In this document: one piece after another, positions 7,822-20,574 of the stretch | Layout of the letters: each line of letters opens with the position of its first letter | Position numbering within the stretch: position 1 is the first letter of the stretch | Notes under the pieces: model-generated | Seen by the model: the letters and a program-made list of their open reading frames with translations, nothing else | Database searches by the model: none | What the model was told of the DNA's origin: nothing | Translations under genes and position numbers: made by a program | Assembly (NCBI RefSeq): GCF_004118975.1 | Contig: NZ_CP035376.1 | Location: forward strand, 1,178,001-1,242,000 | From: Luteimonas sp. YGD11-2 | GTDB taxonomy: Bacteria > Pseudomonadota > Gammaproteobacteria > Xanthomonadales > Xanthomonadaceae | DNA: 64,000 bases | Reading direction: 5' to 3'

Positions 7822-7846
7822 GGTCACTCGGAATGGTTGGTTTGGT

Positions 7847-8269: not shown

Positions 8270-8273
8270 TTAG

Positions 8274-8384
8274 GCCTAACACCTGAGTTAAGCCGACTGC
8301 GTAGTGGAGCCAAAGCCATGGCAAGCTTTTCCTGCCATGGCTTTGGTGTAACGAAGCAAGTTCGGCTTGAACGAATTGTTAGGC
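8274..8384 (-). other. attC-19 (111 bp, long class)
   Basis: Cores GCCTAAC and GTTAGGC. The central arm carries an inverted repeat, AAAGCCATGGCAAG against CCTGCCATGGCTTT, that the 60-bp sites lack. Confidence 0.92.
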
Positions 8385-8408
8385 CCCAGCTTACACTGCG
8401 CCAAGCCG

Positions 8409-8768
8409 CTAGCGGACGTGGTTTCCCGGCCGTTCCCACAATACCTCAATGGCCTCTGCGAAGCGCCGCTGGTCTGTGGGGTCGATTAGTTCTGCGGATA
8501 TGACGGTTCCGCCTTGTACAACGACGCGCACAGAAATTGAAGTTCCTGTCCAGCAGTAGACAAGCCGGCCCCAATCCCAGTCGTCATAGTTCGTTGGGCG
8601 GCCGACGGCTTTAAACATGCGATCTGATGGTTGATTAGCATAGTTCGCTGGCTCTCGAAAAAATGAGCTCAGCAAGCTGTCGGACCTAGATGCTGCTGGA
8701 TAGCTGGGGAGTGATGGCGGTATGGCAGGCGTGAAGACTCTACGAATGGCATGCAGCGCTTTCCACAT
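8409..8768 (-). CDS. Cassette 19: hypothetical protein
   Basis: 119 residues from the ATG at 8768 (a GTG four codons upstream lacks a ribosome-binding site). The N-terminal third is basic and proline/serine-rich. The C-terminal half looks like a small alpha/beta domain with D-D-W-D-W-G-R-L-V-Y-C-W, V-V-Q-G-G-T-V-I-S-A and a terminal helix. No signal peptide or transmembrane segment, and no family recognised. Its position and orientation inside one cassette support it being the cassette gene. Confidence 0.65.
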   Translation of the reverse strand: MWKALHAIRRVFTPAIPPSLPSYPAASRSDSLLSSFFREPANYANQPSDRMFKAVGRPTNYDDWDWGRLVYCWTGTSISVRVVVQGGTVISAELIDPTDQRRFAEAIEVLWERPGNHVR

Positions 8769-8811
8769 AACGTGTTTCACCTGTCACAAGCTAGATCAGA
8801 ACGTCTGTGGG

Positions 8812-8871
8812 GCCTAACACCTGAATTAAGCCGCGCCGCGAAGCGGCGTCGGCTTGAATGAATTGTTAGGC
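8812..8871 (-). other. attC-18 (60 bp)
   Basis: Short-class site with GCCTAAC and GTTAGGC cores and the standard CGCGCCGCGAAGCGGCG apex. Confidence 0.93.
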
Positions 8872-8893
8872 GCGTCTCTCTCGATCTGCATGA

Positions 8894-9298
8894 CTACTCC
8901 ATGTTGTACAGCTCGATAAGCTTTTCCATTACCGCCATTTGCTGCTCAATGAACGATGCGCCTTGAGCCTCCATCGATCCAGCTAAGTGCATGAGGGGCT
9001 TCATGACCTCTTGCTTGTTCATAACCATGGCAGAGAACAACTTGGGAACCCCATTGTGCTCCGCTGCGTTTTGTACGCCATAGATAAATTCTTCAATTTT
9101 GTCTCGGTCAGCCATCCATGATGGTAACCGTGTGCTACCGGAAACAACTTCACGATGCGCCCTTAGCTTGTCAGCATGGTGCATCCTAGTCTTGGCCTGA
9201 AGATAGCCACGAATAACGAGAAGAGAGATATACGCAACGATCGAGAGGCCAGCTGTTGGCCAAGCTAGGATCAGAGCAACAAAGAAAAGAATAACCAT
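8894..9298 (-). CDS. Cassette 18: membrane-anchored helical protein
   Basis: 134 residues. A hydrophobic N-terminal region (about 2-30, one or two membrane helices) is followed by a soluble helical part rich in charged residues, methionine and glutamine (D-K-I-E-E-F-I-Y-G-V, K-L-F-S-A-M-V-M-N-K, Q-Q-M-A-V-M-E-K-L). The start is an ATG 21 bp from the cassette boundary. No family recognised. Likely inner-membrane anchored with a cytoplasmic helical domain. Confidence 0.68.
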   Translation of the reverse strand: MVILFFVALILAWPTAGLSIVAYISLLVIRGYLQAKTRMHHADKLRAHREVVSGSTRLPSWMADRDKIEEFIYGVQNAAEHNGVPKLFSAMVMNKQEVMKPLMHLAGSMEAQGASFIEQQMAVMEKLIELYNME

Positions 9299-9318
9299 CA
9301 GATCGGGCGCCCCCTAGC

Positions 9319-9430
9319 GCCTAACACCTAAGCTAAGCCGCGCCGCAGCGGGGCGTGAAGCACATGGAAAGCTGTACCTGCCATGTGGTTTGCGCCCCGA
9401 TGCGGAGTCGGCTTGAGCGCGTTGTTAGGC
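9319..9430 (-). other. attC-17 (112 bp, long class)
   Basis: GCCTAAC and GTTAGGC cores with the long-class central inverted repeat (CACATGGAAAG against CCTGCCATGTG). The right core's TTA is the stop codon of the cassette-17 acetyltransferase. Confidence 0.92.
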
Positions 9431-9940
9431 ACCGTGCCGTTCGAAGTGAAGCACGTCGTGCCACTGGCCAGAGAGCCAGAAGCTCTGGCTTGAATGGCCG
9501 AATTGCACAAAGCCGTTTCGCAGAAGCACTTTGGCCGAGGCTTCGTTCCCTACACGAACTGCGGCCTCGACTCGGTGAAGCCGGAGCCGCACAAAAGCAT
9601 AATCTAGCGCAAGCCGAACTGCCTCAGTCGCGTAGCCTTTGCCGCCATGGTCTTGGGCTACGCGATAGCCCAGTTCCGCGCTATGGAAGTGGTCGCCACG
9701 GACCCGGGTAAGGTTGACACGGGCGACAAGGTGGCCCGACCCGTTTCTCGCGAGGAACTGATACGCGCTGCCCTCTGCTGCTTCGGCCTGAGCAACTGCG
9801 ATCGCCTTTGCGATTCCGCCCGGCTCATAGAAGGATGTCGCCCTCGCATTAATATGTGATTCGAAGAACGCCCGGTTTGTGAACTCAAACTGCCCCAAGT
9901 CCTGTTCGTCCTCGGCCGTGGGTGCAGATAGCGACAGCAT
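9425..9940 (-). CDS. Cassette 17: GNAT family N-acetyltransferase (RimJ/RimL-like)
   Basis: 171 residues. It has the GNAT acetyl-CoA-binding pattern: L-G-Y-R-V-A-Q-D-H-G-G-K-G-Y-A-T-E-A near residue 98, then a helix, R-V-E-A-A-V-R-V-G-N-E-A-S-A-K-V-L-L-R-N-G-F and a final W-H-D-V-L-H-F-E-R. This is the layout of RimJ/RimL-type enzymes that acetylate protein N-termini or small molecules. The substrate is unknown. The ATG at 9940 is preferred over an upstream alternative at 9958. The stop codon lies in attC-17. Confidence 0.87.
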   Translation of the reverse strand: MLSLSAPTAEDEQDLGQFEFTNRAFFESHINARATSFYEPGGIAKAIAVAQAEAAEGSAYQFLARNGSGHLVARVNLTRVRGDHFHSAELGYRVAQDHGGKGYATEAVRLALDYAFVRLRLHRVEAAVRVGNEASAKVLLRNGFVQFGHSSQSFWLSGQWHDVLHFERHGA

Positions 9941-9949
9941 ATGGGAGGG

Positions 9950-10009
9950 GCCTAACACCAGAATTAAGCCGCGCCGCGAAGCGGTGTCGGCTTGAATGAA
10001 TTGTTAGGC
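9950..10009 (-). other. attC-16 (60 bp)
   Basis: Short-class site with GCCTAAC and GTTAGGC cores. The cassette-16 ORF reads through most of it and stops at 9964-9966. Confidence 0.93.
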
Positions 10010-10422
10010 GGCACGCGACGCCATGCAACGAGCCACGCAGCGACCGGTAGAGGGACAACCTGCATGACGAGGGCCCATGACGTGTACCAAGACAGCGGAG
10101 TCTGGCCCAGCAAGTGAGCTGCGGGGAGGTATGCCCAGGCGAGGAACGCAAGCAGGGCAATCAGCACATACCAAGCGTAATGCCAGGGCTTGAGCAGGCG
10201 AAGCACAAGGACGGCTGGCATAGACAAGACGACATGTAACGCGAAATCAATGGGGAAAAGCATCGCGTTTGAGGCAACGGTACCTATTCTCAGCGAATGT
10301 ACCCAAGTTGCCACGGAAAAGTGCACGGCAAGGTACGCGAACACAACCGATACAAGCACGCCGTGCGCAACGCCAATTGCAACCGCGCCGCCAACCGACA
10401 CAAGCTCTCTCAAGCGCACCAT
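9964..10422 (-). CDS. Cassette 16: multi-pass membrane protein with attC-encoded tail
   Basis: 152 residues. The ATG at 10422 has a perfect AGGAGG ribosome-binding site. About four membrane helices (roughly 10-35, 48-75, 82-102 and 115-137). The frame continues into the attC, which encodes the final P-N-N-S-F-K-P-T-P-L-R-G-A-A before a stop inside the site. The same kind of tail ends the proteins of cassettes 2, 6 and 13. Function unknown; likely inner membrane. Confidence 0.75.
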   Translation of the reverse strand: MVRLRELVSVGGAVAIGVAHGVLVSVVFAYLAVHFSVATWVHSLRIGTVASNAMLFPIDFALHVVLSMPAVLVLRLLKPWHYAWYVLIALLAFLAWAYLPAAHLLGQTPLSWYTSWALVMQVVPLPVAAWLVAWRRVPPNNSFKPTPLRGAA

Positions 10423-10436
10423 ATCTTCCTCCTGCC

Positions 10437-10496
10437 GCCTAACACCAGAGTTAAGCCGTGCCGCGAAGCGGCATCGGCTTGAACGACTCGTTAGGC
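10437..10496 (-). other. attC-15 (60 bp)
   Basis: Short-class site with GCCTAAC and GTTAGGC cores and a GCCGCGAAGCGGC apex. It belongs to a cassette without a convincing gene. Confidence 0.93.
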
Positions 10497-10796
10497 CGCC
10501 GTTCCCTGGCACCTGCGCCCGACGTGCGACCGCCCAACCCCTGAGGCGAACAGTACAACAAGCGCCGTGTTTGGTGCTGCCGAAGCGCACCACGCGCGCG
10601 GCCAAGAACTCTCACCGCGCACTGACCGAGGCCGATTCGGAAGGTCGAATCTTGCGAAGGGTCGCGCCTGTCCGAAGCCGAGGTGCTGCAGGGCTGACTG
10701 CCGATGCCTGCACCGCGCGTGCAAGGTGCAAAAGCTGCGGGCAAGCGAGGCGTTACCGATTGCCTAGAACCAAGCAACAACAGTGCGGGAAACAAG
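10497..10796. repeat. Cassette 15: copy of a repeated cassette family with no convincing gene
   Basis: 300 bp without an ATG-started gene in the usual orientation. The sequence is related to cassettes 1 and 11. A block of about 215 bp next to the right boundary aligns without gaps in all three, a middle part varies in length and sequence, and about 45 bp before the attC are conserved again. A minus-strand frame beginning TTG at 10795 stays open and has similar N-terminal codons in the three copies, but it lacks a ribosome-binding site. It could be a non-coding RNA, a promoter cassette or an unusual coding cassette. Confidence 0.7.
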
Positions 10797-10908
10797 GCCT
10801 AACACCTAAGTTAAGCCGCGCCGCAGCGGGGCGTGAAGCACATGGCAAGCTTTTCCTGCCATGTGGTTTGCGCCCCGATGCGGTGTCGGCTTGAACGCAT
10901 TGTTAGGC
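10797..10908 (-). other. attC-14 (112 bp, long class)
   Basis: GCCTAAC and GTTAGGC cores with the long-class CACATGGCAAG/CCTGCCATGTG central inverted repeat. Its right core provides the stop of the cassette-14 ORF. Confidence 0.92.
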
Positions 10909-11208
10909 CGCAGCACGTTCACTGACCGAGACCCCGCAGGATGGGCAGTGACTGAGCCTTGGCCTGAACGGACCAAGTGGAACAAGCTTGTGTAGAGATA
11001 ACCACAGCCTAGCGTGACAACGGGGACAGCGCGATGCCCGGTGCAAATAGCCGAACGCAGCGAGCATGACGGCAATGACGCCGAAGCTAACTAAAACTGT
11101 AAGTTGCGGCGGCACTGTGACCATAGCGATGAGTCCCATCAACCAAACGGCAAGGACAGCGACAATGAAGTTCCGCTGTGCTTTTGCCAATGTGTCGAGG
11201 ATAGTCAT
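10903..11208 (-). CDS. Cassette 14: membrane protein with C-terminal zinc ribbon
   Basis: 101 residues. Two membrane helices (about 14-32 and 35-54) are followed by C-P-R-C near residue 61 and C-P-S-C near residue 88, a likely zinc-ribbon pair. The ATG lies 6 bp inside the cassette boundary and the TAA stop is inside attC-14. The plan (membrane segment plus CxxC pair) parallels cassette 22. Function unknown. Confidence 0.7.
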   Translation of the reverse strand: MTILDTLAKAQRNFIVAVLAVWLMGLIAMVTVPPQLTVLVSFGVIAVMLAAFGYLHRASRCPRCHARLWLSLHKLVPLGPFRPRLSHCPSCGVSVSERAAA

Positions 11209-11213
11209 CTGCG

Positions 11214-11273
11214 GCCTAACACCAGAATTAAGCCGACCCGCGAAGCAGGTTCGGCTTGAATGAATTGTTAGAG
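11214..11273 (-). other. attC-13 (60 bp)
   Basis: Short-class site, GCCTAAC to GTTAGAG, with a CCCGCGAAGCAGGTT apex variant. The cassette-13 ORF ends inside it. Confidence 0.92.
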
Positions 11274-11662
11274 CGCACCCGCTGCAGTAGGTGAGTGATT
11301 AGTGCAATGGGGACGCCGTACAAGCCAACGAGGTATGCAACGGCCGGCTCTATGGCCACGGAGCATACGGTAGCAACGACAAGAACAATAAGTAGCGTTG
11401 AGATAATGGAGGCGCGACCTCGTTGCAGCAGTGCCGCGTACAAAGGGCACCCGATGAGGAGCGTGGCCGGCGCGGCAAAGAGCAGCGCGATGGCGAGAAG
11501 AGGAAATGCCGCTAGCGGCACAGAGAGCCAATCATGAAGTTGCGGCGCGGGATTGGAGAAAGCGATTCCGACTCCCAAGAGCACGGATGCGAGGTAGCCA
11601 CCAGCGAACAATCCGATGATCCCGCAGGGAATCGTTCTTCCAATGGCCGAGGAGTACTTCAT
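11228..11662 (-). CDS. Cassette 13: multi-pass membrane protein with attC-encoded tail
   Basis: 144 residues starting at the ATG at 11662, 6 bp inside the cassette. About four hydrophobic segments (12-32, 46-72, 84-103 and 105-122). The last residues, S-N-N-S-F-K-P-N-L-L-R-G-S-A, are encoded by attC-13. No family recognised. Probable inner-membrane protein. Confidence 0.73.
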   Translation of the reverse strand: MKYSSAIGRTIPCGIIGLFAGGYLASVLLGVGIAFSNPAPQLHDWLSVPLAAFPLLAIALLFAAPATLLIGCPLYAALLQRGRASIISTLLIVLVVATVCSVAIEPAVAYLVGLYGVPIALITHLLQRVRSNNSFKPNLLRGSA

Positions 11663-11667
11663 GTGCG

Positions 11668-11779
11668 CGCTAACACCTAAGTCAAGCCGCGCCGCGTAGT
11701 GGAGCCAAGCACATGGCAAGCTGTACCTGCCATGTGCTTGGTGTAACGAAGCGGTGTCGGCTTGAACGCATTGTTAGGC
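11668..11779 (-). other. attC-12 (112 bp, long class)
   Basis: Right core GTTAGGC. The left core is degenerate (CGCTAAC), deviating from RYYYAAC. It carries the long-class CACATGGCAAG/CCTGCCATGTG central inverted repeat. Confidence 0.88.
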
Positions 11780-12220
11780 CCTAGGCTGCGCTATTGCACC
11801 ACTGACCCATACTGCGAGAACCATGGGAGTCACGTGCAGCACGGACAGGCTGTAGAGCCTGCCAAGCGAGAAATCTAGCTGGGTAGCGGTACCTTCTTTG
11901 TTTGGGTCCGATGCTCGCACACCGGTGATGGGTTGCGGAAGCCCGATCAACTCGAACTCTACAGGGCTATCCCGCCGGACTGGTTCGGTGCGCTGCTGGG
12001 GTGAACAGGTCGAAACCTCAAGCCCCAATGCGGGATGCGCTTCCTGGATCAGATCGACCTCGCAGGGAGCAATCTGCACGCTCTCTCCAGTCGCGAGTTG
12101 GAGCCAGATTTTCGACGCCGTAGCGGCACTTGGCAATCCACGTAGTGCAGGGTGCTCTAGCCGAAAAGGCAAGAGTTGAACCGATTGCACTACCTGTCCA
12201 ATCAGTAGAGAACTGTCCAT
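11774..12220 (-). CDS. Cassette 12: hypothetical protein
   Basis: 148 residues from the ATG at 12220. No signal peptide. Mixed alpha/beta sequence with a hydrophobic C-terminal segment (L-H-V-T-P-M-V-L-A-V-W-V-S-G). Two cysteines are in the middle part. The TAA stop is in the attC core. No family recognised; placement and orientation are those of a normal cassette gene. Confidence 0.65.
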   Translation of the reverse strand: MDSSLLIGQVVQSVQLLPFRLEHPALRGLPSAATASKIWLQLATGESVQIAPCEVDLIQEAHPALGLEVSTCSPQQRTEPVRRDSPVEFELIGLPQPITGVRASDPNKEGTATQLDFSLGRLYSLSVLHVTPMVLAVWVSGAIAQPRA

Positions 12221-12223
12221 AGG

Positions 12224-12335
12224 GCCTAACACCAGAGTTAAGCCGAGACGCGTAGTGGAGCGGGCCAGGTGGCAAGCTTTATCTGCCGCCTGGCCCGCGT
12301 AACGAAGCGGCTTCGGCTTGAACGACTCGTTAGGC
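12224..12335 (-). other. attC-11 (112 bp, long class)
   Basis: GCCTAAC and GTTAGGC cores. The central arm has GCCAGGTGGCAAG against CTGCCGCCTGGC. The outer arms (AGACGCGTAGTGGAGCG, CGTAACGAAGCGGCTTCGG) closely match attC-1. Confidence 0.9.
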
Positions 12336-12658
12336 CGCCGCTGCCCAGCACTTGTGCCCGACCCGCGACAGCCCAACCCTTGAGCCGAACACTACAACAG
12401 CCCTTGCCAGAACGCTTGGGTTGGCGTTTGGCACGACCGGAGCTGGATGGCCGGTGCGCGCGGCCAAGAACTCTCACCGCGCTCTGTGCGAAGCCGACTC
12501 GGCAGGTTGAATCTTGCGGAGAGTCGCGGCTGTCCGAAGCCGAGTTGCTGCAGGGCTGACTGCCGATGCCTACACCGCGCGTGCGAGGTGCGAACGCTGC
12601 GGATAAGCGAGGCGCCGCAGATTTCCTGGAGCCCGGCAACAACAGTGCGGGAAACAAG
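12336..12658. repeat. Cassette 11: second copy of the repeated cassette family
   Basis: 323 bp related to cassettes 1 and 15, most similar to cassette 1. The conserved right-hand block of about 215 bp has no gaps relative to the other copies; the middle (about 12405-12455) differs completely. The TTG-started minus-strand frame (12657) stays open as in the other copies. No ATG-started ORF with a ribosome-binding site was found in the cassette direction. Confidence 0.7.
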
Positions 12659-12718
12659 GCCTAACGCCTGAATTAAGCCGACCCGCGAAGCGGGTTCGGC
12701 TTGAATGAATTGTTAGGC
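12659..12718 (-). other. attC-10 (60 bp)
   Basis: Short-class site, GCCTAAC to GTTAGGC, with a CCCGCGAAGCGGGTT apex. Confidence 0.93.
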
Positions 12719-12728
12719 CGCACGCCGG

Positions 12729-12944
12729 TCATGATTGGCGACCTTTTGCGATCTCCTGGACGGCCTTGCGAGTGTCTTGCACGTCGTAGTGAACCGAAAG
12801 GATTGCAGCCGTAACAACAAAGTAGCCGATACCGACGGAAAAACCGAAATCCATGCCCAGCAGCACCGCCGGCACCAGAGAGAACAGGATGGTCCAGAAG
12901 AGCTTGATGGCAACGCCAAGCAGGTCGTTGGATGTGTGTGTCAC
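12729..12944 (-). CDS. Cassette 10: small membrane protein
   Basis: 71 residues from a GTG start with a GGGGAG ribosome-binding site 6 bp upstream. Two hydrophobic helices (about 11-30 and 34-50) and a charged C-terminus (V-Q-D-T-R-K-A-V-Q-E-I-A-K-G). No family recognised. Likely inner membrane with a cytoplasmic tail. Confidence 0.68.
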   Translation of the reverse strand: MTHTSNDLLGVAIKLFWTILFSLVPAVLLGMDFGFSVGIGYFVVTAAILSVHYDVQDTRKAVQEIAKGRQS

Positions 12945-12985
12945 GAGTTGCTCCCCTTGGTACTCGCCGCAGATCAGCCTGTGCG

Positions 12986-13045
12986 GCCTAACGCCTGAAT
13001 TAAGCCGACCCGCGAAGCGGGTTCGGCTTGAATGAATTGTTAGAG
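12986..13045 (-). other. attC-9 (60 bp)
   Basis: Short-class site, GCCTAAC to GTTAGAG, almost identical to attC-10. Confidence 0.93.
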
Positions 13046-13049
13046 GGCG

Positions 13050-13538
13050 TCACGTGGAATACGCCTGCTCTACATTGCTATTGAGAGTGACCAAGCCGCC
13101 TAGGACGACCAGTGAACAAGTGAACAACTTGAAATCTCGGTCAGACGATCCGACTGGTTGAGCCAAGAACTTGCCACCATGGAATAGGTTGTTTCTGACG
13201 CAACGAACGTAAGCGATGAGGCGTTCTGCTTGAGAGACGCCGGCGGCAACAGGTACGGCCGACCAAGAAAGGCCTGCCGCGGCAGAGTACGACTGACGCA
13301 AAGGCGGATTTGCCACCAAATAGGCGACAGATGCATCTAGTTCTGGTGTTGCAGCCGAGTTGAAGTTTGCGGCGATTGACTGGCCGAAGGTTGTCCAGTC
13401 TGGTTCCGCATAGCCGCGCTGGCTGGACTTGGCAAAGCCGCCCGCTTTTAGCGCGTACTCAAAGCGCGAAAATATGCCAAGGAACTCACATGCGAGTTCT
13501 CTGGGCATGTGGAGCTTTTGCCAAGGAGCCTTGAGCAT
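13050..13538 (-). CDS. Cassette 9: HEPN-like protein, possible RNase
   Basis: 162 residues, soluble, largely helical. Near residue 115 it has the signature R-N-N-L-F-H-G, which fits the R-x4-H catalytic motif of HEPN domains (R115, H120), preceded by a long helix (A-E-R-L-I-A-Y-V-R-C-V). A similar R-N-N-x-F-H-G pattern occurs in pEK499_p136-type HEPN proteins. HEPN proteins are commonly RNases in toxin-antitoxin, abortive-infection and other defence systems. No partner antitoxin is visible in the same cassette. RNase activity and a defence role are inferred from the motif only. Confidence 0.65.
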   Translation of the reverse strand: MLKAPWQKLHMPRELACEFLGIFSRFEYALKAGGFAKSSQRGYAEPDWTTFGQSIAANFNSAATPELDASVAYLVANPPLRQSYSAAAGLSWSAVPVAAGVSQAERLIAYVRCVRNNLFHGGKFLAQPVGSSDRDFKLFTCSLVVLGGLVTLNSNVEQAYST

Positions 13539-13546
13539 TCAGAGCC

Positions 13547-13606
13547 CTCTAACACCAGAATTAAGCCGTGCCGCGAAGCGGCATCGGCTTGAATGACTTG
13601 TTAGGG
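13547..13606 (-). other. attC-8 (60 bp)
   Basis: Short-class site with a left core variant CTCTAAC and right core GTTAGGG. Its right core supplies the cassette-8 stop codon. Confidence 0.9.
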
Positions 13607-13996
13607 CGCAACCGCATGAGCCGCACCCTTTCCGTTCTTGACTAAGTAGATGATACGGCCGGATGGCACCTCTTGATTCAGGGTGAACCGGATCTTCGCG
13701 GAACACCGGCACGCTGCCACCGGCTCACCGCCGCTGTCCGTGTCAATTGCTAAGGTGAGCGAACCCCAATCGGGCAAGAGTTGAGGTCGCGTGACGCGCT
13801 CGCCGCAACTCAGTCCGACAAGTCCAGATACTAGCAAGCGAGCATCGGCGCGCTCGACGGTAAGTCGATCTTGGCCATATGGATCGTGAGTTTCATCGCA
13901 GGAAGCGAGCTCTTCAAAGCTGAAGGACTCGGCAGAGGACGCGGTGCCTGGGGATGCAGCAACCAAGAAAGCTATGAGTAACGTGAGCCTATCCAT
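13601..13996 (-). CDS. Cassette 8: hypothetical secreted protein
   Basis: 131 residues. A Sec signal peptide is visible (M-D-R-L-T-L-L-I-A-F-L-V-A-A, cleavage likely after the serine/alanine-rich stretch near residue 22). The mature part has four cysteines, including a C-R-C pair near residue 97, so disulfides are likely in the periplasm. The ATG is just inside the cassette; the stop TAA is in attC-8. No family recognised. Confidence 0.7.
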   Translation of the reverse strand: MDRLTLLIAFLVAASPGTASSAESFSFEELASCDETHDPYGQDRLTVERADARLLVSGLVGLSCGERVTRPQLLPDWGSLTLAIDTDSGGEPVAACRCSAKIRFTLNQEVPSGRIIYLVKNGKGAAHAVAP

Positions 13997-14000
13997 TGCG

Positions 14001-14060
14001 CCCTAACACCTGAATTAAGCCGCGCCGCGAAGCGGCGTCGGCTTGAATGAATTGTTAGGC
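14001..14060 (-). other. attC-7 (60 bp)
   Basis: Short-class site, CCCTAAC to GTTAGGC. An IS30-family element begins about 8 bp to its right, separating it from its own cassette gene. Confidence 0.92.
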
Positions 14061-14068
14061 CTCGCAGG

Positions 14069-15144
14069 TTAACAAAGTAAGTGCAACACCCACGCCACCC
14101 GGAAAGGAAAAGGTGAGCTGGCAGACTGGGGAGGACTTCTCCGGCAAGAGACGATCCTTCATGTACAGCCAGCTCACCCAGGGTGAAAGATACACGCTGG
14201 GCGTCCTCAATCGACACGGCCTCACCGGCCGCGCCATCGCCCGAATCATGGGCCGCGACCCGAGCACGATCAGTCGTGAGCTACGGCGCAACGCCTGCCA
14301 CGCCACCGACGGCGCCTACCGACCCAGCAAGGCCCAGGAGCGAACCAACGGTCGACGGCGGCGCTCCCGGCGCGTGAAGCAGCATGAGCCCGGTATTCTC
14401 GAGGCCATCGAGGAGCTTCTGCGAAGCGAGCAGTGGAGCCCCGAGCAGATCGCGAACTGGCTGGCCGACAACAACGTCGCCAGGATCAGCCACATGACCA
14501 TCTACCGCCACGTGCACAGCGACGCCAGGCGCGGTGGCACGCTCCGCAGCTGCCTGCGCCAAGGCGGCAAGCGCCGACGAAAACGCACGTTCGGCCCAGA
14601 GAAACGCGGCCGCCTGCAGGGCAAGCCCATGATCGACACCCGACCCGAAGCCGTCGAGACCCGCGACGAAGTGGGCCATTGGGAAGGAGATACCGTCATG
14701 GGCTCGGTCACCGAGCGCGACTGCCTCCTGACCCTGGTCGAACGCAGCACCGGCCTCGCTCTGGTCGCCAAGCTGCCGCATCGCACTACGACTGCAGTGA
14801 ACCGGGCCGCGCTGAAGCTGATCCGCGAAAGCGGCCTGCCGTTCAAGACCATTACCTGGGACAACGGCACGGAGTTCCATGGCTACAAGGAGCTCGAGCA
14901 GGCCGCCCACATCCGTTGCTACTTCGCCTACCCGCACCGCCCATGGCAACGCGGCAGCAACGAAAATTTCAACGGGCTGCTACGGCAGTACTTTCCCAAA
15001 CGAAGAAGCCTTGCAAAAGTACGGCAAGGCCACTGCGACACCATCGCCCACAAGCTCAACCACAGGCCCAGGAAACGACATGGCTACAAGTCCCCGATCG
15101 AGCGACTCGAAGAACTACTCGGGGTGTTGCACTTCGCGTGTTAA
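14069..15144 (+). mobile_element. IS30-family insertion sequence
   Basis: About 1076 bp bounded by imperfect 23-bp inverted repeats (14069-14091 and 15122-15144). The inner 13 bases, AAGTGCAACACCC, match perfectly, and the outer TTAACA is shared. The single transposase gene ends inside the right repeat. I could not find a convincing target duplication. The element lies inside cassette 7, between attC-7 and the cassette ORF, and is transcribed against the cassettes. Confidence 0.85.
14161..15144 (+). CDS. IS30-family transposase
   Basis: 327 residues. The N-terminal helix-turn-helix (Y-S-Q-L-T-Q-G-E-R-Y, G-R-D-P-S-T-I-S-R-E-L-R-R-N) is diagnostic for IS30. The catalytic DDE residues sit in W-E-G-D-T-V, W-D-N-G-T-E-F and G-S-N-E-N-F-N-G. 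The ATG at 14161 is chosen because the conserved N-terminus starts there; an in-frame upstream start exists at 14113. The TAA stop lies within the right inverted repeat. The gene appears intact. Confidence 0.92.
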   Translation: MYSQLTQGERYTLGVLNRHGLTGRAIARIMGRDPSTISRELRRNACHATDGAYRPSKAQERTNGRRRRSRRVKQHEPGILEAIEELLRSEQWSPEQIANWLADNNVARISHMTIYRHVHSDARRGGTLRSCLRQGGKRRRKRTFGPEKRGRLQGKPMIDTRPEAVETRDEVGHWEGDTVMGSVTERDCLLTLVERSTGLALVAKLPHRTTTAVNRAALKLIRESGLPFKTITWDNGTEFHGYKELEQAAHIRCYFAYPHRPWQRGSNENFNGLLRQYFPKRRSLAKVRQGHCDTIAHKLNHRPRKRHGYKSPIERLEELLGVLHFAC

Positions 15145-15145
15145 T

Positions 15146-15547
15146 TCACCCCTGTGTATTAGGCGTCTTGTCGCGAGCCCAAAACTCCACCAGGATCGTC
15201 ATAAGCGCCCACGTAAGAAGTGTGGGGCGAATTTTCCCGGGCACAAGATTATTTCCGTTCAGCAGTAGGTCAATTATCTCTGGAAGAAATGCGGAATAAG
15301 CTAGGGCTAGAGCAGAGTAGACAATGCGATTTCGGCTCGATGAGATGAAAAGAATAGCGATCACGCTGCCGGCGAGGACGAGCAAGACCTGCCCGAACTG
15401 GAGATCACTCAGGTTTTCAGTTCCAGCAAAGACAAAGCCTAGGACTGCCCCAAAGAACATATTCAAGCCATTGAGATTAGCTCGATACTCGCTGGCGGAC
15501 ATTCGTCCGAGTCCGATCTTGGCTAGTAATGCAGTGAGCTTTTCCAA
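15146..15547 (-). CDS. Cassette 7: multi-pass membrane protein, 3' end next to IS30
   Basis: 133 residues from a TTG start at 15547 with an AGAGGAG ribosome-binding site; an internal ATG 15 codons later is an alternative. About four membrane helices (28-45, 52-70, 74-92 and 107-124). The stop codon lies one base outside the IS30 element, so the natural C-terminus may or may not have been altered by the insertion. The cassette is now separated from its attC by the IS. Function unknown. Confidence 0.6.
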   Translation of the reverse strand: MEKLTALLAKIGLGRMSASEYRANLNGLNMFFGAVLGFVFAGTENLSDLQFGQVLLVLAGSVIAILFISSSRNRIVYSALALAYSAFLPEIIDLLLNGNNLVPGKIRPTLLTWALMTILVEFWARDKTPNTQG

Positions 15548-15570
15548 ATTACTGACTCCTCTAATCCCAG

Positions 15571-15630
15571 GCCTAACGCTTGAGTTAAGGCGTGCCGCGA
15601 AGCGGCATCGCCTTGAACGAATTGTTAGCC
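15571..15630 (-). other. attC-6 (60 bp)
   Basis: Short-class site, GCCTAAC to GTTAGCC, with slightly diverged arms (AAGGCGTGCC, GGCATCGCC). The cassette-6 ORF ends inside it. Confidence 0.92.
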
Positions 15631-15962
15631 GGCCGGCCGTTGATGCATTGATAGCCAACAAGCCGCTCTTCCAAGTGTGCTGCAGTCAGAAGCTCAGGAT
15701 AGACACGGCCACGCAAGCTATGAATGAGCGCGCGGTCGCACGGATAACTACGTGATGACTCCAGCACTTTGATGCCAACCACCGAGCCATCCTCCACCAC
15801 GGTGAAGGAGAGTTTGGCTTGGCAGGTATAAGTTCGCCCGAAACAGTCATCCGGTGGCACCGGAACCTCCGGAACCTCAAGCGGCTCCGGAGTTGATGGA
15901 TTAGCCATAGCCAACCCGCTCGTGAAGATGGCAATCAGCATGAGAGCGCCAAGAGATTTCAT
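15585..15962 (-). CDS. Cassette 6: secreted protein with TonB-C-like domain and attC-encoded tail
   Basis: 125 residues. Signal peptide at residues 1-20 (cleavage near G-L-A-M-A-N). A proline/glutamate-rich linker (about 22-38) leads to a segment reading C-Q-A-K-L-S-F-T-V-V-E-D-G-S-V-V-G-I-K-V, which resembles the beta-rich start of TonB C-terminal domains. Three cysteines suggest a disulfide. The last residues, A-N-N-S-F-K-A-M-P-L-R-G-T-P, come from attC-6. The TonB-like reading is tentative, as the full domain is not present. Confidence 0.6.
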   Translation of the reverse strand: MKSLGALMLIAIFTSGLAMANPSTPEPLEVPEVPVPPDDCFGRTYTCQAKLSFTVVEDGSVVGIKVLESSRSYPCDRALIHSLRGRVYPELLTAAHLEERLVGYQCINGRPANNSFKAMPLRGTP

Positions 15963-15966
15963 AGCC

Positions 15967-16026
15967 GGCTAACACCTGAGTTAAGCCGCGCCGCGAAGCG
16001 GCGTCGGCTTGGACGAATTGTTAGGC
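15967..16026 (-). other. attC-5 (60 bp)
   Basis: Short-class site with a left core variant GGCTAAC and right core GTTAGGC. Confidence 0.91.
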
Positions 16027-16032
16027 AACATG

Positions 16033-16566
16033 CTAGTACACCTTGGTCGTTCTGATTTCGTAGACAAATTCGGGTGCGTTTGCGTACTGGAGTGCTGTAT
16101 CCCACAGCGGATGCGTGCGGTCAGAGAGGTTTGCGGCCAAGGCCTTTATTTCTGACGGAGCGTCTTCGCGGAAGAAACTGGTGTTGCCCCGATTCCTGTC
16201 ATAGCTGACGCCACGCACCTCGAACTTGAGCGGCCTAGTCTTGGCGGCCTTTTGCTGCTCGACGTCGGTGTGCGCAGTTTCCCAAGTGATTGCGCGCACC
16301 ATGAGGTAGTACGCCTTCTCATCGACTTTGCCATTCACCGCAAAGGCAGCCTTCGGCGGGTACTTCGGTTGGAGCCTTCGGGGGTAAAGGCCGCCGACGA
16401 CGAACCTAAAGTGCATGTTGTTCGGCGACATTTCATAGCGCTCGAAGTCCACCGGGTCTACCCAGTGACCTTTCGCCTCTACGAGGTGTTCCTTAACGAA
16501 CAGGACGGCGAGAGCTTCCTCAGACCCTGCGTACTCCCGGTAGCGTGCGAGTAGCTTCTGATCCAT
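16033..16566 (-). CDS. Cassette 5: hypothetical soluble protein
   Basis: 177 residues, no signal or membrane segment. An N-terminal helix (M-D-Q-K-L-L-A-R-Y-R-E-Y) is followed by a mixed beta-rich region (H-F-R-F-V-V-G-G-L-Y-P-R-R-L-Q) with many aromatic and basic residues, and a C-terminal Y-A-N-A-P-E-F-V-Y-E-I-R-T. Starts at an ATG and ends 7 bp from the attC. No family recognised; a single well-formed cassette gene. Confidence 0.68.
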   Translation of the reverse strand: MDQKLLARYREYAGSEEALAVLFVKEHLVEAKGHWVDPVDFERYEMSPNNMHFRFVVGGLYPRRLQPKYPPKAAFAVNGKVDEKAYYLMVRAITWETAHTDVEQQKAAKTRPLKFEVRGVSYDRNRGNTSFFREDAPSEIKALAANLSDRTHPLWDTALQYANAPEFVYEIRTTKVY

Positions 16567-16596
16567 GTGTCACCTCGCCGGAAAGCTGCCCATGTT

Positions 16597-16656
16597 GCCT
16601 AACGCCAGAATTAAGCCGTGCCGCGAAGCGGCATCGGCTTGAATGAATTGTTAGGT
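16597..16656 (-). other. attC-4 (60 bp)
   Basis: Short-class site, GCCTAAC to GTTAGGT. The right core's TTA is the stop codon of the cassette-4 ORF. Confidence 0.93.
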
Positions 16657-17544
16657 GCTGGGCAACGATGCCACGAACACCGAGAAGAGCTTCCGGTCAG
16701 CAGGGGACTCCAAAATTGCCGCGAGCTGAGCGATGTTATCGCGAGTAGCAAATGCTCTAAGCGTAGCCACGACCTGTTCCATTTGGTCTAGCCGGGCATC
16801 CAAGCCGCCGGTAACTTTGTCCAGATGCCTCGCTTCCTTGTCAGAAAGGCTGCTTACATCAACTCCTTCAAGACGGTGAAGTGCTGGCTCCAGCTCAAGG
16901 AGGTCATTGCGGACGGTGTCATAGGACTGCAGCGCAGCGATGTGAGATAGGCGCCCCACGGTCTCAGTGACGTAGTACGGCATGTCTGGCCGAGCGATAC
17001 CGGACTCCAGGGCGATTTCGCGCTCGCGCTTGGTGCCTCTTCTGTTCGTGGTGATTGCCCCATCACCACTGCGCATCATCCGCTTAACGCTATCGGCGAC
17101 TGGTTGGGGCACACCGGTCCCGCGTAGGGAGGTGACGGCTTTGTACGCGGGGCGAGCGCTGTCCCTGAGGTTGTCGAAGCGGGCGAGGAGCGCGGGCAGC
17201 CGGCTCTGAACAGCTTCCAACCTTTCGCGACGCTCCTTGGCGCGCAGATCCCTGTCGAAGATCTTTTGTAGGCTCGTGAAGACAACGGAGAATGCGCTCT
17301 TCCCGCATACGCTCCCGAGATTCGTAACCTGCCCGTCAGTGGTGGTTACGAGGTAGCCGTTGCCATGAGGCTGTTTGCAGCTTTTCAACCCGCAGGGCTG
17401 CCTGCTACTAAACGAGTAAACGCCAATGATCTCCTTCAGGGCTGCCGACTTTGGATCAAGTGCCCTGACGAAACCAGGGGTCTCGTACACCTCATCCCAA
17501 GAGGTGAGGCGAACGACACCTCTTTCAACGCTGATAGTGATCAT
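16651..17544 (-). CDS. Cassette 4: large hypothetical protein with Cys/His cluster
   Basis: 297 residues, the largest cassette product here. The N-terminal part contains C-G-L-K-S-C-K-Q-P-H (about 51-60) and a later cysteine in L-G-S-V-C-G-K (about 80), which could bind a metal. The rest is helical and charged (K-E-R-R-E-R-L-E-A-V, then K-R-E-R-E-I-A), with coiled-coil character towards the C-terminus. No signal or membrane segment. The ATG at 17544 is 9 bp inside the cassette; the stop is in attC-4. No family recognised. Confidence 0.68.
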   Translation of the reverse strand: MITISVERGVVRLTSWDEVYETPGFVRALDPKSAALKEIIGVYSFSSRQPCGLKSCKQPHGNGYLVTTTDGQVTNLGSVCGKSAFSVVFTSLQKIFDRDLRAKERRERLEAVQSRLPALLARFDNLRDSARPAYKAVTSLRGTGVPQPVADSVKRMMRSGDGAITTNRRGTKREREIALESGIARPDMPYYVTETVGRLSHIAALQSYDTVRNDLLELEPALHRLEGVDVSSLSDKEARHLDKVTGGLDARLDQMEQVVATLRAFATRDNIAQLAAILESPADRKLFSVFVASLPST

Positions 17545-17552
17545 CAACCAGC

Positions 17553-17664
17553 GCCTAACACCTAAGTTAAGCCGAGACGCGCAGTGGAGCGAAGCACATG
17601 GCAAGCTGTATCTGCCATGTGTTTTGCGGAACGAAGCGGCTTCGGCTTGAACGCATTGTTAGAG
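17553..17664 (-). other. attC-3 (112 bp, long class)
   Basis: GCCTAAC to GTTAGAG with the long-class CACATGGCAAG/CTGCCATGTG central inverted repeat. It gives the stop codon of cassette 3. Confidence 0.92.
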
Positions 17665-18060
17665 GGCGGGCGGCGGAATCTCTTCGTGCGTCCGCAAGGG
17701 CCCAATAACCTCATTGATATTGGGCCACACCTGATACGCCGTCCAGTCTCCGAGCCCATCAGGCGAGCAGTACACCAAGAACTCACTGGAAGATTTGACA
17801 CTCTGCTTATACACGTAAACGCCGCACCCGCGAGCCCTGTTTCCGGCCAAGGTGCGCGTGATGTCTCCTCGGATGTCGGTTTGCCACGATCCAGGATACA
17901 TCTCTGAGATAGTCGGCTCTCTCGCAGCGACTTGGTCCTGGTACGTCCTATCCGAGAAAAGGAAGTACCAGCAGGCGATAGCAACGACGATGATGACGGG
18001 CAACGCGAAAAGTGCTGATCGAAGCTCTTGGCGAGCTGCTTCTTCTTGATCCGCCGACAT
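17659..18060 (-). CDS. Cassette 3: single-TM hypothetical protein
   Basis: 133 residues from the ATG at 18060 (GGAGAG ribosome-binding site). A charged N-terminus (D-Q-E-E-A-A-R-Q-E-L), one membrane helix (about 20-42), then a C-terminal domain with two cysteines (R-G-C-G-V-Y-V-Y, F-L-V-Y-C-S-P), likely outside the cytoplasm. The stop is in attC-3. No family recognised. Confidence 0.67.
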   Translation of the reverse strand: MSADQEEAARQELRSALFALPVIIVVAIACWYFLFSDRTYQDQVAAREPTISEMYPGSWQTDIRGDITRTLAGNRARGCGVYVYKQSVKSSSEFLVYCSPDGLGDWTAYQVWPNINEVIGPLRTHEEIPPPAL

Positions 18061-18075
18061 ATGTCTCTCCAAGCC

Positions 18076-18135
18076 CTCTAACACCAGAATTAAGCCGCGC
18101 CGCGAAGCGGCGTCGGCTTGAATGAACTGTTAGAC
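18076..18135 (-). other. attC-2 (60 bp), aadA-like cassette
   Basis: Short-class site with CTCTAAC left core variant and GTTAGAC right core. The aadA-like reading frame runs into it and stops at 18090-18092. Confidence 0.92.
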
Positions 18136-18935
18136 ATCATTGGCGTGGAGCCGAGCAGACTGGCGGCTTCGTGCTTCACAAAGTAAATGAACGGAGTCAA
18201 CTGATCAGCGCGTGAGGCCAAGCAATCCATCCCTTGTCCAAGGTAAGCCTGCTGGGCTTCAAGCAGCACGGGCTGATGTTGGACGGGCAGGCGTTCCATT
18301 ACCCAGTTGGCAGCTACATCCTTCGGCGCGATCTTGCCGGTTGCTGCGCTGTACCAAATGCGAGACAAAGTAAGCACTACATTCCGCTCGTCGCCTGCCC
18401 AATCCGGTTGTGAGTTCCATAGTTTCAAGGTGTCGGCCAGTGCTTTGAATAGATCGCTTTCCGGGACTGGGTTGAAGAAATCTTCCGCGGCCGAACCTGC
18501 CAAGGCAAGGCTGTGTTGCCTTGCTTTAGTTAGCAGAATAGCCAGATCAACATCGGTTGTCGCGGGCTCGAAGATGCCCGCAAGAATGTCCTTGCGCTGC
18601 CACTCCCCGAATTGCAGTTCCCGTCTGGCTGGATAACGCCAAGGAACAACATCGCCGTACACGACGATGGTAACTTCCAAGGCACGGAGAGCTTCACTTT
18701 GGCCGGGAGAAGCGGAAACTTCCAGGAAATCTACGAACAGAGCCTGCCGCACAGTCTCATCGAGCTGTGCAGTCACAGTAACCAGCAAATCAATATCACT
18801 GCATGGCTTCAGGCCACCGTCGAGTGCAGAGCCGTACAAATGCACGGCCAGCAACGTCGATCCCAGATGATGCTCGATGACGTTGAGTGCCTGTGATAGC
18901 TGTACCGAAATCTCGGCGGGCACTGCGTTGCTCAT
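18090..18935 (-). CDS. aadA: Cassette 2: aminoglycoside nucleotidyltransferase ANT(3'')-type (aadA-like)
   Basis: 281 residues. The sequence follows AadA closely along its whole length: L-L-A-V-H-L-Y-G-S-A near residue 28, the nucleotidyltransferase motif K-P-C-S-D-I-D-L-L-V with D47 and D49, the catalytic-base motif L-E-V-T-I-V-V with E87, then W-R-Y-P-A-R-R-E-L-Q-F-G-E-W, D-W-A-G-D-E-R-N-V-V-L-T and T-G-K-I-A-P-K-D-V-A. AadA adenylylates streptomycin and spectinomycin. The C-terminus is longer than the usual ~260 residues because the frame reads into attC (S-N-S-S-F-K-P-T-P-L-R-G-A-A). The ATG at 18935 is just inside the cassette. It is second from attI, so expression from an integron promoter is plausible. 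Confidence 0.92.
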   Translation of the reverse strand: MSNAVPAEISVQLSQALNVIEHHLGSTLLAVHLYGSALDGGLKPCSDIDLLVTVTAQLDETVRQALFVDFLEVSASPGQSEALRALEVTIVVYGDVVPWRYPARRELQFGEWQRKDILAGIFEPATTDVDLAILLTKARQHSLALAGSAAEDFFNPVPESDLFKALADTLKLWNSQPDWAGDERNVVLTLSRIWYSAATGKIAPKDVAANWVMERLPVQHQPVLLEAQQAYLGQGMDCLASRADQLTPFIYFVKHEAASLLGSTPMMSNSSFKPTPLRGAA

Positions 18936-18938
18936 GAT

Positions 18939-19050
18939 GTCTAACGCCAGAGTTAAGCCGAGACGCGTAGTGGAGCGAAACACATGGCAAGCTTTACCTG
19001 CCATGTGTTTTGCGTAACGAAGCGGCTTCGGCTTGAACGACTTGTTAGGC
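18939..19050 (-). other. attC-1 (112 bp, long class)
   Basis: GTCTAAC to GTTAGGC with the CACATGGCAAG/CTGCCATGTG central inverted repeat. It belongs to the cassette nearest attI. Confidence 0.92.
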
Positions 19051-19375
19051 CGCCGCAAGCCGAGCTTGCGCCCGACCTTGCGACAGCCCAACCCCTGAGC
19101 CGAACACTACAACAAGTCTGGCCGAACGGCCTGAGGCTGGCACTTGCCGGGGACGGAGCCAAAACCAGCGACTCGCGCGGCCAAGAACTCTCTCAGCGCC
19201 CTGTCCGAAGCCGACTCGGCCGGTCGAATCTTGCGGAGAGTCGCGCCAGTCCGAAGCCGAGGCCCTGCAGGGCTGACTGCCGATGTCTGCACCGCGCGTG
19301 AGAGGTGCAAACGCTGCGGATACGCGATGCGCTACAGATCGCCTGGAACCCAGCAACAACAGTGCGGGAAACAAG
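19051..19375. repeat. Cassette 1: third copy of the repeated cassette family, adjacent to attI
   Basis: 325 bp related to cassettes 11 and 15. The right-hand ~215 bp (about 19161-19375) align without gaps to both. The middle part differs; about 45 bp before the attC are conserved again. The minus-strand frame opening with TTG at 19374 is free of stops over the conserved block, but no ATG or ribosome-binding site supports it. As first cassette it lies between attI and the aadA-like gene, so it would be the 5' leader of any transcript from an integron promoter. Confidence 0.7.
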
Positions 19376-19440
19376 GCCTAACACCTATTCGAAGACAAAT
19401 CGGGCTGTAACGTCGCCCCCGTAACCCGTTGTTTTCCCCG
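19376..19440 (-). other. attI recombination region (approximate)
   Basis: GCCTAAC at 19376-19382 is the cassette junction core, but the bases to its right (ACCTATTCGAAGACAAATCGG...) do not follow the attC pattern, so this is the integrase-proximal attI site. A weak GC stem (TCCCG/CGGGA, 19441-19454) followed by TTTT lies just after it. The exact attI limits cannot be set from sequence, and no clear cassette or intI promoter could be assigned. Confidence 0.75.
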
Positions 19441-19462
19441 TCCCGCATCCGGGATTTTCCTA

Positions 19463-19545: not shown

Positions 19546-20574
19546 ATGGGACGCTACCACCCCACGGATCGGGGAACAACGAGTGATGGAGTCAGCGCCG
19601 GTGAGAGCCGTCCGGGCGGGCTGCTGGAGCGGATGCGGGGGCGGATCCGACGGCTCGGGCTTGCCCGCAGGACGGAGGATGCCTATGTGGGGTGGGCCGT
19701 GCGGTTCATTCGCGCCAACGGCAGGCGGCATCCGCGCGAACTTGGCGGGCGCGAGGTGGAAGCGTTTCTGACCTCGCTTGCGGTATGTGGAAATGTCGCG
19801 CCTTCCACCCAGAACCAGGCCCTTGCGGCACTGCTGTTCCTTTACCGCGAAGTGCTCGGGCAGGACCTGCCGTGGATGGAGGACATCCGTCGCGCGAAGA
19901 AACCGCGCCGGCTGCCGGTGGTGCTGTCGCGCGAGGAGTGCGCGGCCGTGCTCGGAGAAATGTCGGGCGTGCACTGGCTGATGGCTTCGCTGCTGTATGG
20001 CAGCGGCCTGCGGCTGATGGAGTGTGTGCGGCTGCGGGTGAAGGACGTCGACTTTTCCCGCGGCGAGATCACCGTGCGGGGTGGCAAGGGCGGGCGGGAT
20101 CGCCGCACGATGCTGCCCGGGGCGTTGTTCGCGCCGTTGCAGGCGCAACTGGAGGAGGTGCGGCGGATCCATCGCCGTGATCTCGACGCGGGATATGGTG
20201 CGGTCTGGCTGCCTTCCGCGCTCGCCGTGAAGTTTCCGACCGCGGCCCGTGAACCCGGTTGGCAGTATGTATTCCCGTCGGGCGCGCGCAGTATCGATCC
20301 GCGCAGCGGCATCACCAGGCGCCATCACCGCGATGAAAAAGGGCTGCAGCGTGCCTTCAGGCTGGCGGTATGCAATGCCGGGCTGGTGAAGCCGGCCACC
20401 TGTCACACACTGCGGCATTCCTTCGCGACCCATCTGCTGGAAGCGGGCTATGACCTGCGCACCATCCAGGAGCTGCTGGGGCACAAGGATGTATCGACCA
20501 CACAGATCTATACGCATGTGCTCAACCGCGGTGGTCGCGGCGTGCGCAGTCCGCTCGACACGGTGCCCGCGTGA
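19546..20574 (+). CDS. intI: Integron integrase (tyrosine recombinase)
   Basis: 342 residues, intact. Tyrosine-recombinase residues are all present: R156 (G-S-G-L-R-L), K181 region (G-G-K-G-G-R-D), H287 and R290 ([11 protein letters not shown]), H313 (L-L-G-H-K-D-V) and nucleophile Y322 (Q-I-Y-T-H-V). Between boxes I and II it has the extra IntI-specific segment ([17 protein letters not shown], about 255-271) that separates integron integrases from other XerC/D-like enzymes. The ATG at 19546 has an AGGAAGG ribosome-binding site. It is divergent from the cassettes and its stop overlaps the start of comEC. Function: attI x attC and attC x attC recombination. Confidence 0.96.

What the first reader, a model, noticed from the sequence alone, without database searches (positions are those of the whole stretch)
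18090..18935. aadA-like streptomycin/spectinomycin resistance cassette in a chromosomal integron
The protein keeps the AadA active-site residues (D47, D49, E87) and follows AadA from end to end, yet carries this host's own attC type. It could represent the environmental reservoir from which mobile aadA cassettes came, or a return from a mobile integron. Its position second from attI favours expression.
Basis: partly seen in the sequence, partly recalled or inferred. Interest (0 to 1): 0.85.

Follow-up and report, generated by a model that had tools for sequence, protein, structure and literature searches.

The report
Clinical aadA16 cassette in chromosomal integron
A bacterium of the Luteimonas kind carries, in its own chromosomal gene-collecting element, nearly the same streptomycin/spectinomycin resistance gene (aadA16) that hospital plasmids carry, with the tag typical of its own family, which points to this family as a likely natural source of that gene.

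Summary
The ORF at 18090-18935 (-) is AadA16, a named clinical ANT(3'')-Ia allele: 99.2% aa, 863/868 nt to the common plasmid copy, 865/868 to the nearest. It is the second of 20 cassettes beside a full-length integron integrase (54% to IntI1) on a 3.2-Mb chromosome. No class 1 integrase or 3'-conserved segment was found there.

Its attC is indistinguishable from the array's other 60-bp attCs (mean 91% against 90% among themselves). A model of those attCs marks 145 of 198 genomes of the family but 11 of 398 drawn from the phylum. It scores plasmid attCs of aadA16, A7, A1 and A2 at 75-88 bits (A22 66.5, A5 28.6).

Rooted on 88-89% relatives, two copies outside class 1 integrons branch before the window-plus-plasmid group. 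None of 440 plasmid records with this gene piece has the window's variant. This favours a Lysobacteraceae cassette pool as source, as Ghaly et al. 2021 predicted from attC for other aadA alleles. Only two sites carry the rooting, and some family copies are identical to plasmid alleles, so a past return is not excluded. Expression and resistance are untested; no promoter was found.

The parts
18093..18935 (-). aadA16 coding region, 281 codons (stop 18090-18092); ANT(3'')-Ia
18082..18944 (-). cassette 2 (aadA16 cassette, 863 bp) between the two recombination points; homology to other copies stops within a few bases of these points in L002, L095, L016 and L017
18076..18135 (-). attC of the aadA16 cassette, 60 bp, folds as single-strand DNA hairpin
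   Evidence: (86.3 bits)
18945..19381 (-). cassette 1, 437 bp, no recognised gene; homologous cassettes at 12230-12664 and 10443-10802
18939..19050 (-). 112-bp attC of cassette 1
   Evidence: 60.8 bits
19376..19388 (-). core of the putative attI (GTTAGGC, recombination point at 19382)
   Evidence: boundary inferred
19546..20574 (+). integron integrase, 342 aa, TIGR02249 459 bits; residues aligned to IntI1 R146, K171, H277, R280, H303, Y312 kept
7853..19381 (-). array of 20 cassettes; 13 attCs of 60 bp and 7 of 111-112 bp (of the 7 long ones 5 match model R1 at 55-63 bits, one only in weak halves, one not at E<=1)
14113..15144 (+). IS30-family transposase inside cassette 7
   Evidence: NF033563, 289 bits

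Best explanation
The locus is an aadA16 gene cassette held by a sedentary chromosomal integron of a Luteimonas-group bacterium (Lysobacteraceae). The enzyme moves AMP from ATP to the 3''-OH of streptomycin and the 9-OH of spectinomycin (inferred from the conserved residues). The cassette moves by integrase recombination between its attC, folded as a single-strand hairpin, and attI (anatomy shown, activity inferred). Its attC is the native type of this bacterial family, so the cassette most likely belongs to a family-wide cassette pool from which class 1 integrons took aadA16 (and probably aadA7). It is more likely a sister of the plasmid copies than a recent spill-back of the alleles now circulating in clinics (inferred).
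For: Identity and residues. Cassette boundaries. Integrase full length, and the only one of 5 TIGR02249 matches in the genome over cut-off. attC native: mean 91% identity to 12 other 60-bp attCs of the array, which are 90% among themselves. Model R1, built without it, gives it 86.3 bits. R1 hits 145 of 198 family genomes at E<=1e-12; at that threshold it hits 11 of 398 phylum genomes, 6 of them in the same order, the own genome included. R1 scores plasmid attCs of aadA16 86.1 and 79.5, aadA7 87.8, aadA1 85.8, aadA2 75.0, aadA22 66.5, but aadA5 28.6. Rooting: at 2 sites L015 or L015+L016 keep the outgroup base, while window and class 1 copies share the derived one. All 440 plasmid records that match the 69-bp piece around 18194 fall at 95-99% identity, none at 99% or more. 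NML93-0793, the same genus as the window, holds an aadA7 variant 24 of 867 nt from plasmid aadA7.
Against: Only 2 informative synonymous transitions root the haplotypes; homoplasy or recombination could mimic this. The nearest plasmid copy equals the inferred ancestor of the window-plus-plasmid group, so the window copy could descend from a mobile copy. Position near attI suggests recent arrival: window second; L056, L025, L018 and L035 have aadA 179-328 bp from the integrase start, though L032, L036, L051 and L062 have it 0.8-3.2 kb away. Some Lysobacteraceae copies equal plasmid alleles over the cassette (aadA7 in L024, 0 of 867; aadA1 in G087, 0 of 861), and the L. wenzhouensis protein is identical to one found in E. 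coli (P0023), so exchange with mobile integrons does occur. No promoter found; no phenotype.
Confidence: 0.68

Rival explanations
1. Return: the cassette came into this chromosome in recent decades from a class 1 (or other mobile) integron carrying aadA16, and has changed at three sites since, two of them close together in the attC.
For: Near identity (865/868) to a plasmid copy. Second position from attI. Whole-cassette identity to plasmid alleles in two other Lysobacteraceae genomes. The two attC changes are 3 bp apart and match other attCs of the array, so they could be one gene-conversion event.
Against: 0 of 440 plasmid records with the 69-bp piece share the window's base at 18194; best E. 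coli match over 184 bp is 97.8%. Three changes on one branch in 85 years have probability 6e-5 at 1e-6 per site per year, though 0.07 if only one counts (the rate is recalled, not from a call). L015 and L016 are basal. No class 1 relic found in the genome (the latter without a positive control).
Confidence: 0.25
2. Silent or differently used gene: the enzyme is intact but not transcribed in this host, so the host is not resistant and the cassette is stored cargo.
For: No sigma-70-like promoter in 18930-20100. Cassette 1 with its 112-bp attC lies between attI and aadA16.
Against: The scan covers only one promoter type. A recurring 'empty' cassette in Xanthomonas arrays is suspected of promoter activity (PMC12444791, passages read); whether cassette 1 is of that kind was not tested.
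Confidence: 0.35
3. A non-resistance nucleotidyltransferase that only resembles AadA.
For: None beyond the lack of an assay here.
Against: 99.2% identity to AadA16, equivalog score 105 bits over cut-off, all checked substrate residues kept.
Confidence: 0.02
4. Assembly or sample contamination by a clinical aadA16 cassette.
For: Near identity to a common clinical gene.
Against: Single 3.2-Mb contig, contamination 0.07. Cassette precisely between native attCs, with a variant seen in none of the 440 plasmid records.
Confidence: 0.02

Closest known systems
aadA16 cassette of class 1 integrons (e.g. Raoultella planticola pS25-68: intI1-aac(6')-Ib-cr-arr-3-dfrA27-aadA16-qacEdelta1-sul1, L002)
   Same: Same 281-aa gene, cassette boundaries and attC type; 863/868 nt
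   Different: There in a plasmid class 1 integron; here in a chromosomal integron with another integrase and mostly unrecognised neighbours
Sedentary chromosomal integrons of Xanthomonadales with clinical cassettes: catB3 and qacI in Lysobacter oculi CP029556 (Ghaly 2021, PMC8352920); gar in the same record as Luteimonas sp. 83-4 (Boehm 2020, PMC7085159)
   Same: Same order of hosts, Xanthomonadales-like attC (Ghaly), clinical resistance cassettes in a chromosome (passages read)
   Different: Other genes; the passages I read report no aadA in such an array, though Ghaly et al. predicted this origin for aadA1a, A2, A6, A7, A24
Lysobacter tolerans UM1 aadA16 (L015) and Luteimonas wenzhouensis aadA2-type cassette (L056)
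   Same: AadA cassettes in attC arrays of the same family; L056 is of the window's genus
   Different: L015 aadA16 differs at 6/868 nt and keeps two ancestral bases; L056 carries another allele directly at attI
ANT(3'')(9) of solved structure 7uy4, and Salmonella AadA (4cs6, 5g4a)
   Same: End-to-end alignment to 7uy4 and the same active-site and substrate residues (residue roles from PMC6065190)
   Different: Salmonella AadA has H185 (N185 here) and, as I recall, is not a cassette gene

Membership tests
ANT(3'')-Ia (AadA) | NCBIfam equivalog ANT_3pp_I above curated cut-off | tested here: met
   480.4 vs 375 bits
ANT(3'')-Ia (AadA) | ATP/Mg residues S36, S46, D47, D49, E87, R192, K205, Y231 | tested here: met
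   roles
ANT(3'')-Ia (AadA) | Determinants for spectinomycin (E87, W112, D182, H/N185) and streptomycin (W173 and insertion 177-178) | tested here: met
ANT(3'')-Ia (AadA) | Adenylylation of streptomycin and spectinomycin; raised MIC | not testable with these tools
   needs assay
AadA16 allele | Near identity to plasmid AadA16 over full length, including the attC-encoded tail | tested here: met
   99.2% aa over 266 residues, 281 aa, 863/868 nt
Integron gene cassette | Single ORF followed by its own attC, bounded by recombination points where homology stops | tested here: met
Sedentary chromosomal integron | Full-length intI divergent from an array of many similar attCs, on the chromosome | tested here: met
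   20 cassettes; intI 459 bits; one contig of 3.2 Mb
Sedentary chromosomal integron | No class 1 platform (IntI1, qacEdelta1-sul1) in the genome | tested here: met
   the latter is an empty search without a positive control in the same call
Sedentary chromosomal integron | Conserved chromosomal site in related species | tested here: inconclusive
   ComEC flank not seen in any fetched locus besides the window, but the flanks held are short
Xanthomonadales-like attC clade | attC homologous to the type of this family and rare elsewhere | tested here: met
   145 of 198 family vs 11 of 398 phylum genomes at E<=1e-12 (candidates per genome capped); own model, not Ghaly's
Source population of mobile aadA16 | Plasmid copies nested inside chromosomal variation | tested here: inconclusive
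   2 informative sites favour it

The most novel reading that the evidence does not exclude
Chromosomal integrons of the Luteimonas group (Lysobacteraceae) are the immediate natural source of the mobile aadA16 and aadA7 cassettes. The attC native to these arrays is the plasmid cassettes' attC, copies outside class 1 integrons branch below the plasmid copies, the window copy is the sister of the plasmid clade, and decayed aadA relics in the same genus show long residence.
Probability: 0.42. Interest if true: 0.75.

Novelty: new member of a known kind. Interest (0 to 1): 0.52.

Why it matters
Where mobile resistance cassettes came from is a long-standing question. Ghaly et al. 2021 predicted from attC shape that several aadA cassettes come from Xanthomonadales. 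In the passages I read they found catB3, qacI and qnrVC1 at home, but no aadA. Here an aadA allele, with its attC, sits in such an array. Related copies allow a rooted comparison, and one genus carries a graded series: near-clinical aadA16, aadA7 at 97%, a near-identical aadA2-type gene, and relics. That makes the direction of transfer testable by sequencing a few dozen old or pristine Lysobacteraceae.

Tried and rejected
Rejected: 'only aadA-like' (it is AadA16); a non-resistance nucleotidyltransferase; a whole class 1 integron captured in the chromosome.

Corrected: from L015 alone I first read aadA16 as foreign to Lysobacter tolerans, because most of that contig's attCs score low with R1. 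The whole genome has 9 R1 sites at E<=1e-12, so I dropped that. The contrast still holds for L024 (aadA7 attC 88.5 against 27-48 for its other matched attCs). In L019 the aadA attC (88.4) and one neighbour (88.3) stand apart from 24-47 for the rest. A first statement that no plasmid shares the window haplotype rested, where 4 of 3048 records matched some part at 99% or more; with a 69-bp piece settled it for site 18194.

Led nowhere: promoter and terminator scan (0 of each); Rfam over 4000-21000 (0 matches); the ComEC flank in relatives; base composition, which only shows that aadA16 (55.3% GC) resembles the array (57.5%) and not the chromosome (70.9%). Not tried: structure prediction, viral contigs.

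Papers: for PMC8352920 outline, abstract and found passages; for PMC7085159, PMC12444791, PMC7148499, PMC11089894, PMC6065190 and PMC5454043 found passages only; all others as search listings. No supplements were read. That an aadA cassette in a Lysobacteraceae chromosomal integron is not in print rests on searches of an open-access library only.

Full report
What is there. On the minus strand an ORF runs from 18935 to 18090 (281 codons and a stop). NCBIfam calls it ANT_3pp_I at 480.4 bits against a cut-off of 375. The DNA comparison gives 5 differences in 868 to the common class 1 copy (L002, L017) and 3 to a Pseudomonas paraeruginosa plasmid copy (L095). Megablast with the surrounding 1021 bp lists 436 plasmid records whose best place is at 99% or more, whatever its length; 440 records match a 69-bp aadA16 piece.

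Cassette anatomy. Recombination points (G^TTRRRY) place 20 cassettes between 19381 and 7853. The first is 437 bp without a recognised gene; the second, 863 bp, is aadA16. Homology to L002, L095, L016 and L017 stops within a few bases of the cassette's ends; L015 continues into an alignable neighbouring attC. That is what integrase-made insertion leaves. The attC folds as single-strand DNA (z -6.7; -5.8). The last ~14 codons of aadA16 are read out of the attC. Of the 20 attCs, 13 are 60 bp and 7 are 111-112 bp; model R1 (below) finds the 13 and 5 of the 7 as whole sites, one of the 7 in two weak halves and one not at E<=1.

Platform. The integrase at 19546-20574 (+) scores 459 bits with TIGR02249, is 54% identical to IntI1 and keeps the residues aligned to IntI1 R146, K171, H277, R280, H303 and Y312 (that these are the catalytic ones is recalled). 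It is the only one of five TIGR02249 matches in the genome that passes the cut-off. A search for the class 1 3'-conserved segment in this genome found nothing (no positive control in that call). The genome is one contig of 3,216,429 bases.

Host. Locus L007, rated 'same genus' by the genome search, lies in L056, Luteimonas wenzhouensis YD-1. G711, also same genus, is Lysobacteraceae bacterium NML93-0793: a 3-kb core of L025 is found in L127. Luteimonas cucumeris falls in another genus of that scheme (G072). I call the host 'Luteimonas group'; its species name was not available.

attC evidence. A covariance model R1 was built from 12 of the 13 60-bp attCs, leaving out that of aadA16. It gives the aadA16 attC 86.3 bits, within the 82-93 of the 12, which match by construction. 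Mean identity of the aadA16 attC to the 12 is 91%; they average 90% among themselves. In class 1 or plasmid settings R1 gives aadA16 86.1 and 79.5, aadA7 87.8, aadA1 85.8, qacL 85.4, aadA2 75.0, aadA22 66.5, the cassette before aadA2 47.3 and aadA5 28.6. The same loci also hold aac(6')-Ib-cr, arr-3, dfrA27, aac(6')-Ib4, estX, dfrA12, dfrA17 and lnu(F), and no match at E<=1 was listed for them (I did not locate their attCs otherwise). R1 matches at E<=1e-12 in 145 of 198 genomes of the family, in 46 of 54 genera. In 398 genomes from the phylum it matches at that level in 11, of which 6, own genome included, are in the same order (candidates per genome were capped, more tightly than). So 'this host's own attC type' is right, and it is also the type of several mobile aadA cassettes. 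In two other hosts the aadA attC is an outlier: L024 (88.5 against 27-48) and L019 (88.4 with one neighbour at 88.3, against 24-47 for the rest).

Haplotypes. Six copies of the aadA16 cassette (five distinct) were compared and polarised with four relatives at 88-89% nt. At 18486 L015 keeps the outgroup base, and at 18440 L015 and L016 do; the window and the three class 1 copies (L002, L095, L017) share the derived base. The order is then L. tolerans, MAG SZAS-58, then window plus class 1 copies. Both sites are synonymous transitions, so this is a lean and no more. L015 and L016 are short contigs without class 1 markers; that they are chromosomal is inferred. The window has three private states among the six: 18194 (changes residue 248), and 18086 and 18083 in the attC. 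The base at 18083 recurs in two of the four outgroup rows. Over 18077-18260 the best full-length plasmid match is 98.4%, though 4 of 3048 records match some part at 99% or more. With a 69-bp piece around 18194 all 440 matching records fall at 95-99%, so none has the window's base there. The best E. coli match over the 184 bp is 97.8%. With a recalled rate of 1e-6 per site per year, three changes on one branch in 85 years have probability 6e-5; one change has 0.07. The AadA tree places the window in a 6-row clade (SH-aLRT 97) with two plasmid AadA16 rows, L. tolerans, MAG SZAS-58 and P0003.

Family picture. 22 of 395 family genomes have an AadA relative at E<=0.001, including distant ones near 40% (an earlier draw gave 12 of 198). 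Copies without a class 1 marker in the stretch held include aadA7 identical over 867 nt (L024), aadA7 with 24 of 867 differences (NML93-0793, same genus as the window), aadA2-type with 5 of 861 (L. wenzhouensis), 4 of 862 (Arenimonas maotaiensis) and 2 of 862 (Pseudoxanthomonas kaohsiungensis), aadA1 identical over 861 nt (G087), and an 80% relative in L. cucumeris. Stenotrophomonas daejeonensis has aadA2 in a class 1 setting. Of the 80 loci, 41 carry an IntI1, qacEdelta1 or sul1 match of 95% or more. The L. wenzhouensis and Arenimonas proteins are identical to one from E. coli (P0023). Two same-genus genomes hold decayed aadA pieces: G635 (75% and 58% pieces) and G717 (72% over 61 residues). 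The identical copies show recent traffic with mobile integrons. The 24-difference copy and the relics show older, local variation. Distance to the integrase: in nine loci with another integron integrase, window included, aadA starts 179-328 bp away in four, 686 bp in the window (second cassette), and 0.8-3.2 kb in four (L007 and L056 counted once, L090 left out because its match is only 27%).

Function. All residues that PMC6065190 (passages) ties to ATP, to spectinomycin and to streptomycin and that I checked are present, so activity on both drugs is expected; I know of no assay of this copy. No sigma-70-like promoter was found between 18930 and 20100 (0 found, 0.2 expected). Cassette 1 belongs to a repeated cassette type with two more copies in the array, one at 80% in the genome's second cluster and one at 95% in another genus. 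The Xanthomonas survey mentions a recurring 'empty' cassette that might carry a promoter (PMC12444791, passages). That cassette 1 drives aadA16 is only a guess.

Against what is known. Ghaly et al. 2021 (PMC8352920; abstract, outline and passages) assigned aadA1a, A2, A6, A7 and A24 to Xanthomonadales by attC, and found catB3 and qacI, but in those passages no aadA, in Lysobacter oculi. Boehm et al. 2020 (PMC7085159, passages) reported gar in the same record. The attC of aadA16 has been discussed for class 1 integrons (PMC5454043, passages). The present locus is a further instance of that known kind, with the added value of the rooted comparison.

Verdict. The reservoir reading is favoured at the level of the family and its cassette pool. 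For this copy a return from a mobile integron remains possible.

Noticed in passing
18945-19381, 12230-12664, 10443-10802 (-): Three homologous cassettes (mean column identity 84%) without a recognised gene in one array; also 95% in another genus (G133) and 80% in the genome's second cluster. Possible promoter or RNA cassette.
   Followed up: partly
L135 (G000:C1:2806000-2820000): Second attC cluster in the same genome without an integron integrase over cut-off, holding a small multidrug transporter 89% identical to QacL, another cassette type with this attC.
   Followed up: partly
6015-7103 (+), with repeated stretches 4869-5517 and 6765-7409: IS110/IS1111-type transposase at the far end of the array, next to an attC-like site at 5818-5929 (44.5 bits); would fit the IS1111-attC group known to target attC sites.
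   Followed up: no
14113-15144 (+): IS30-family transposase inside cassette 7; a further copy seems to lie in the second attC cluster (L135, same antisense frame).
   Followed up: no
L128 (1023-1545) and L129 (about 4205-4381): Decayed aadA relatives (pieces of 58-75% identity) in two genomes of the window's genus.
   Followed up: partly
P0020 / L022 (Rothia nasimurium): AadA protein that looks like a chimera of an AadA16-type N-terminal part and an AadA2-type C-terminal part.
   Followed up: no
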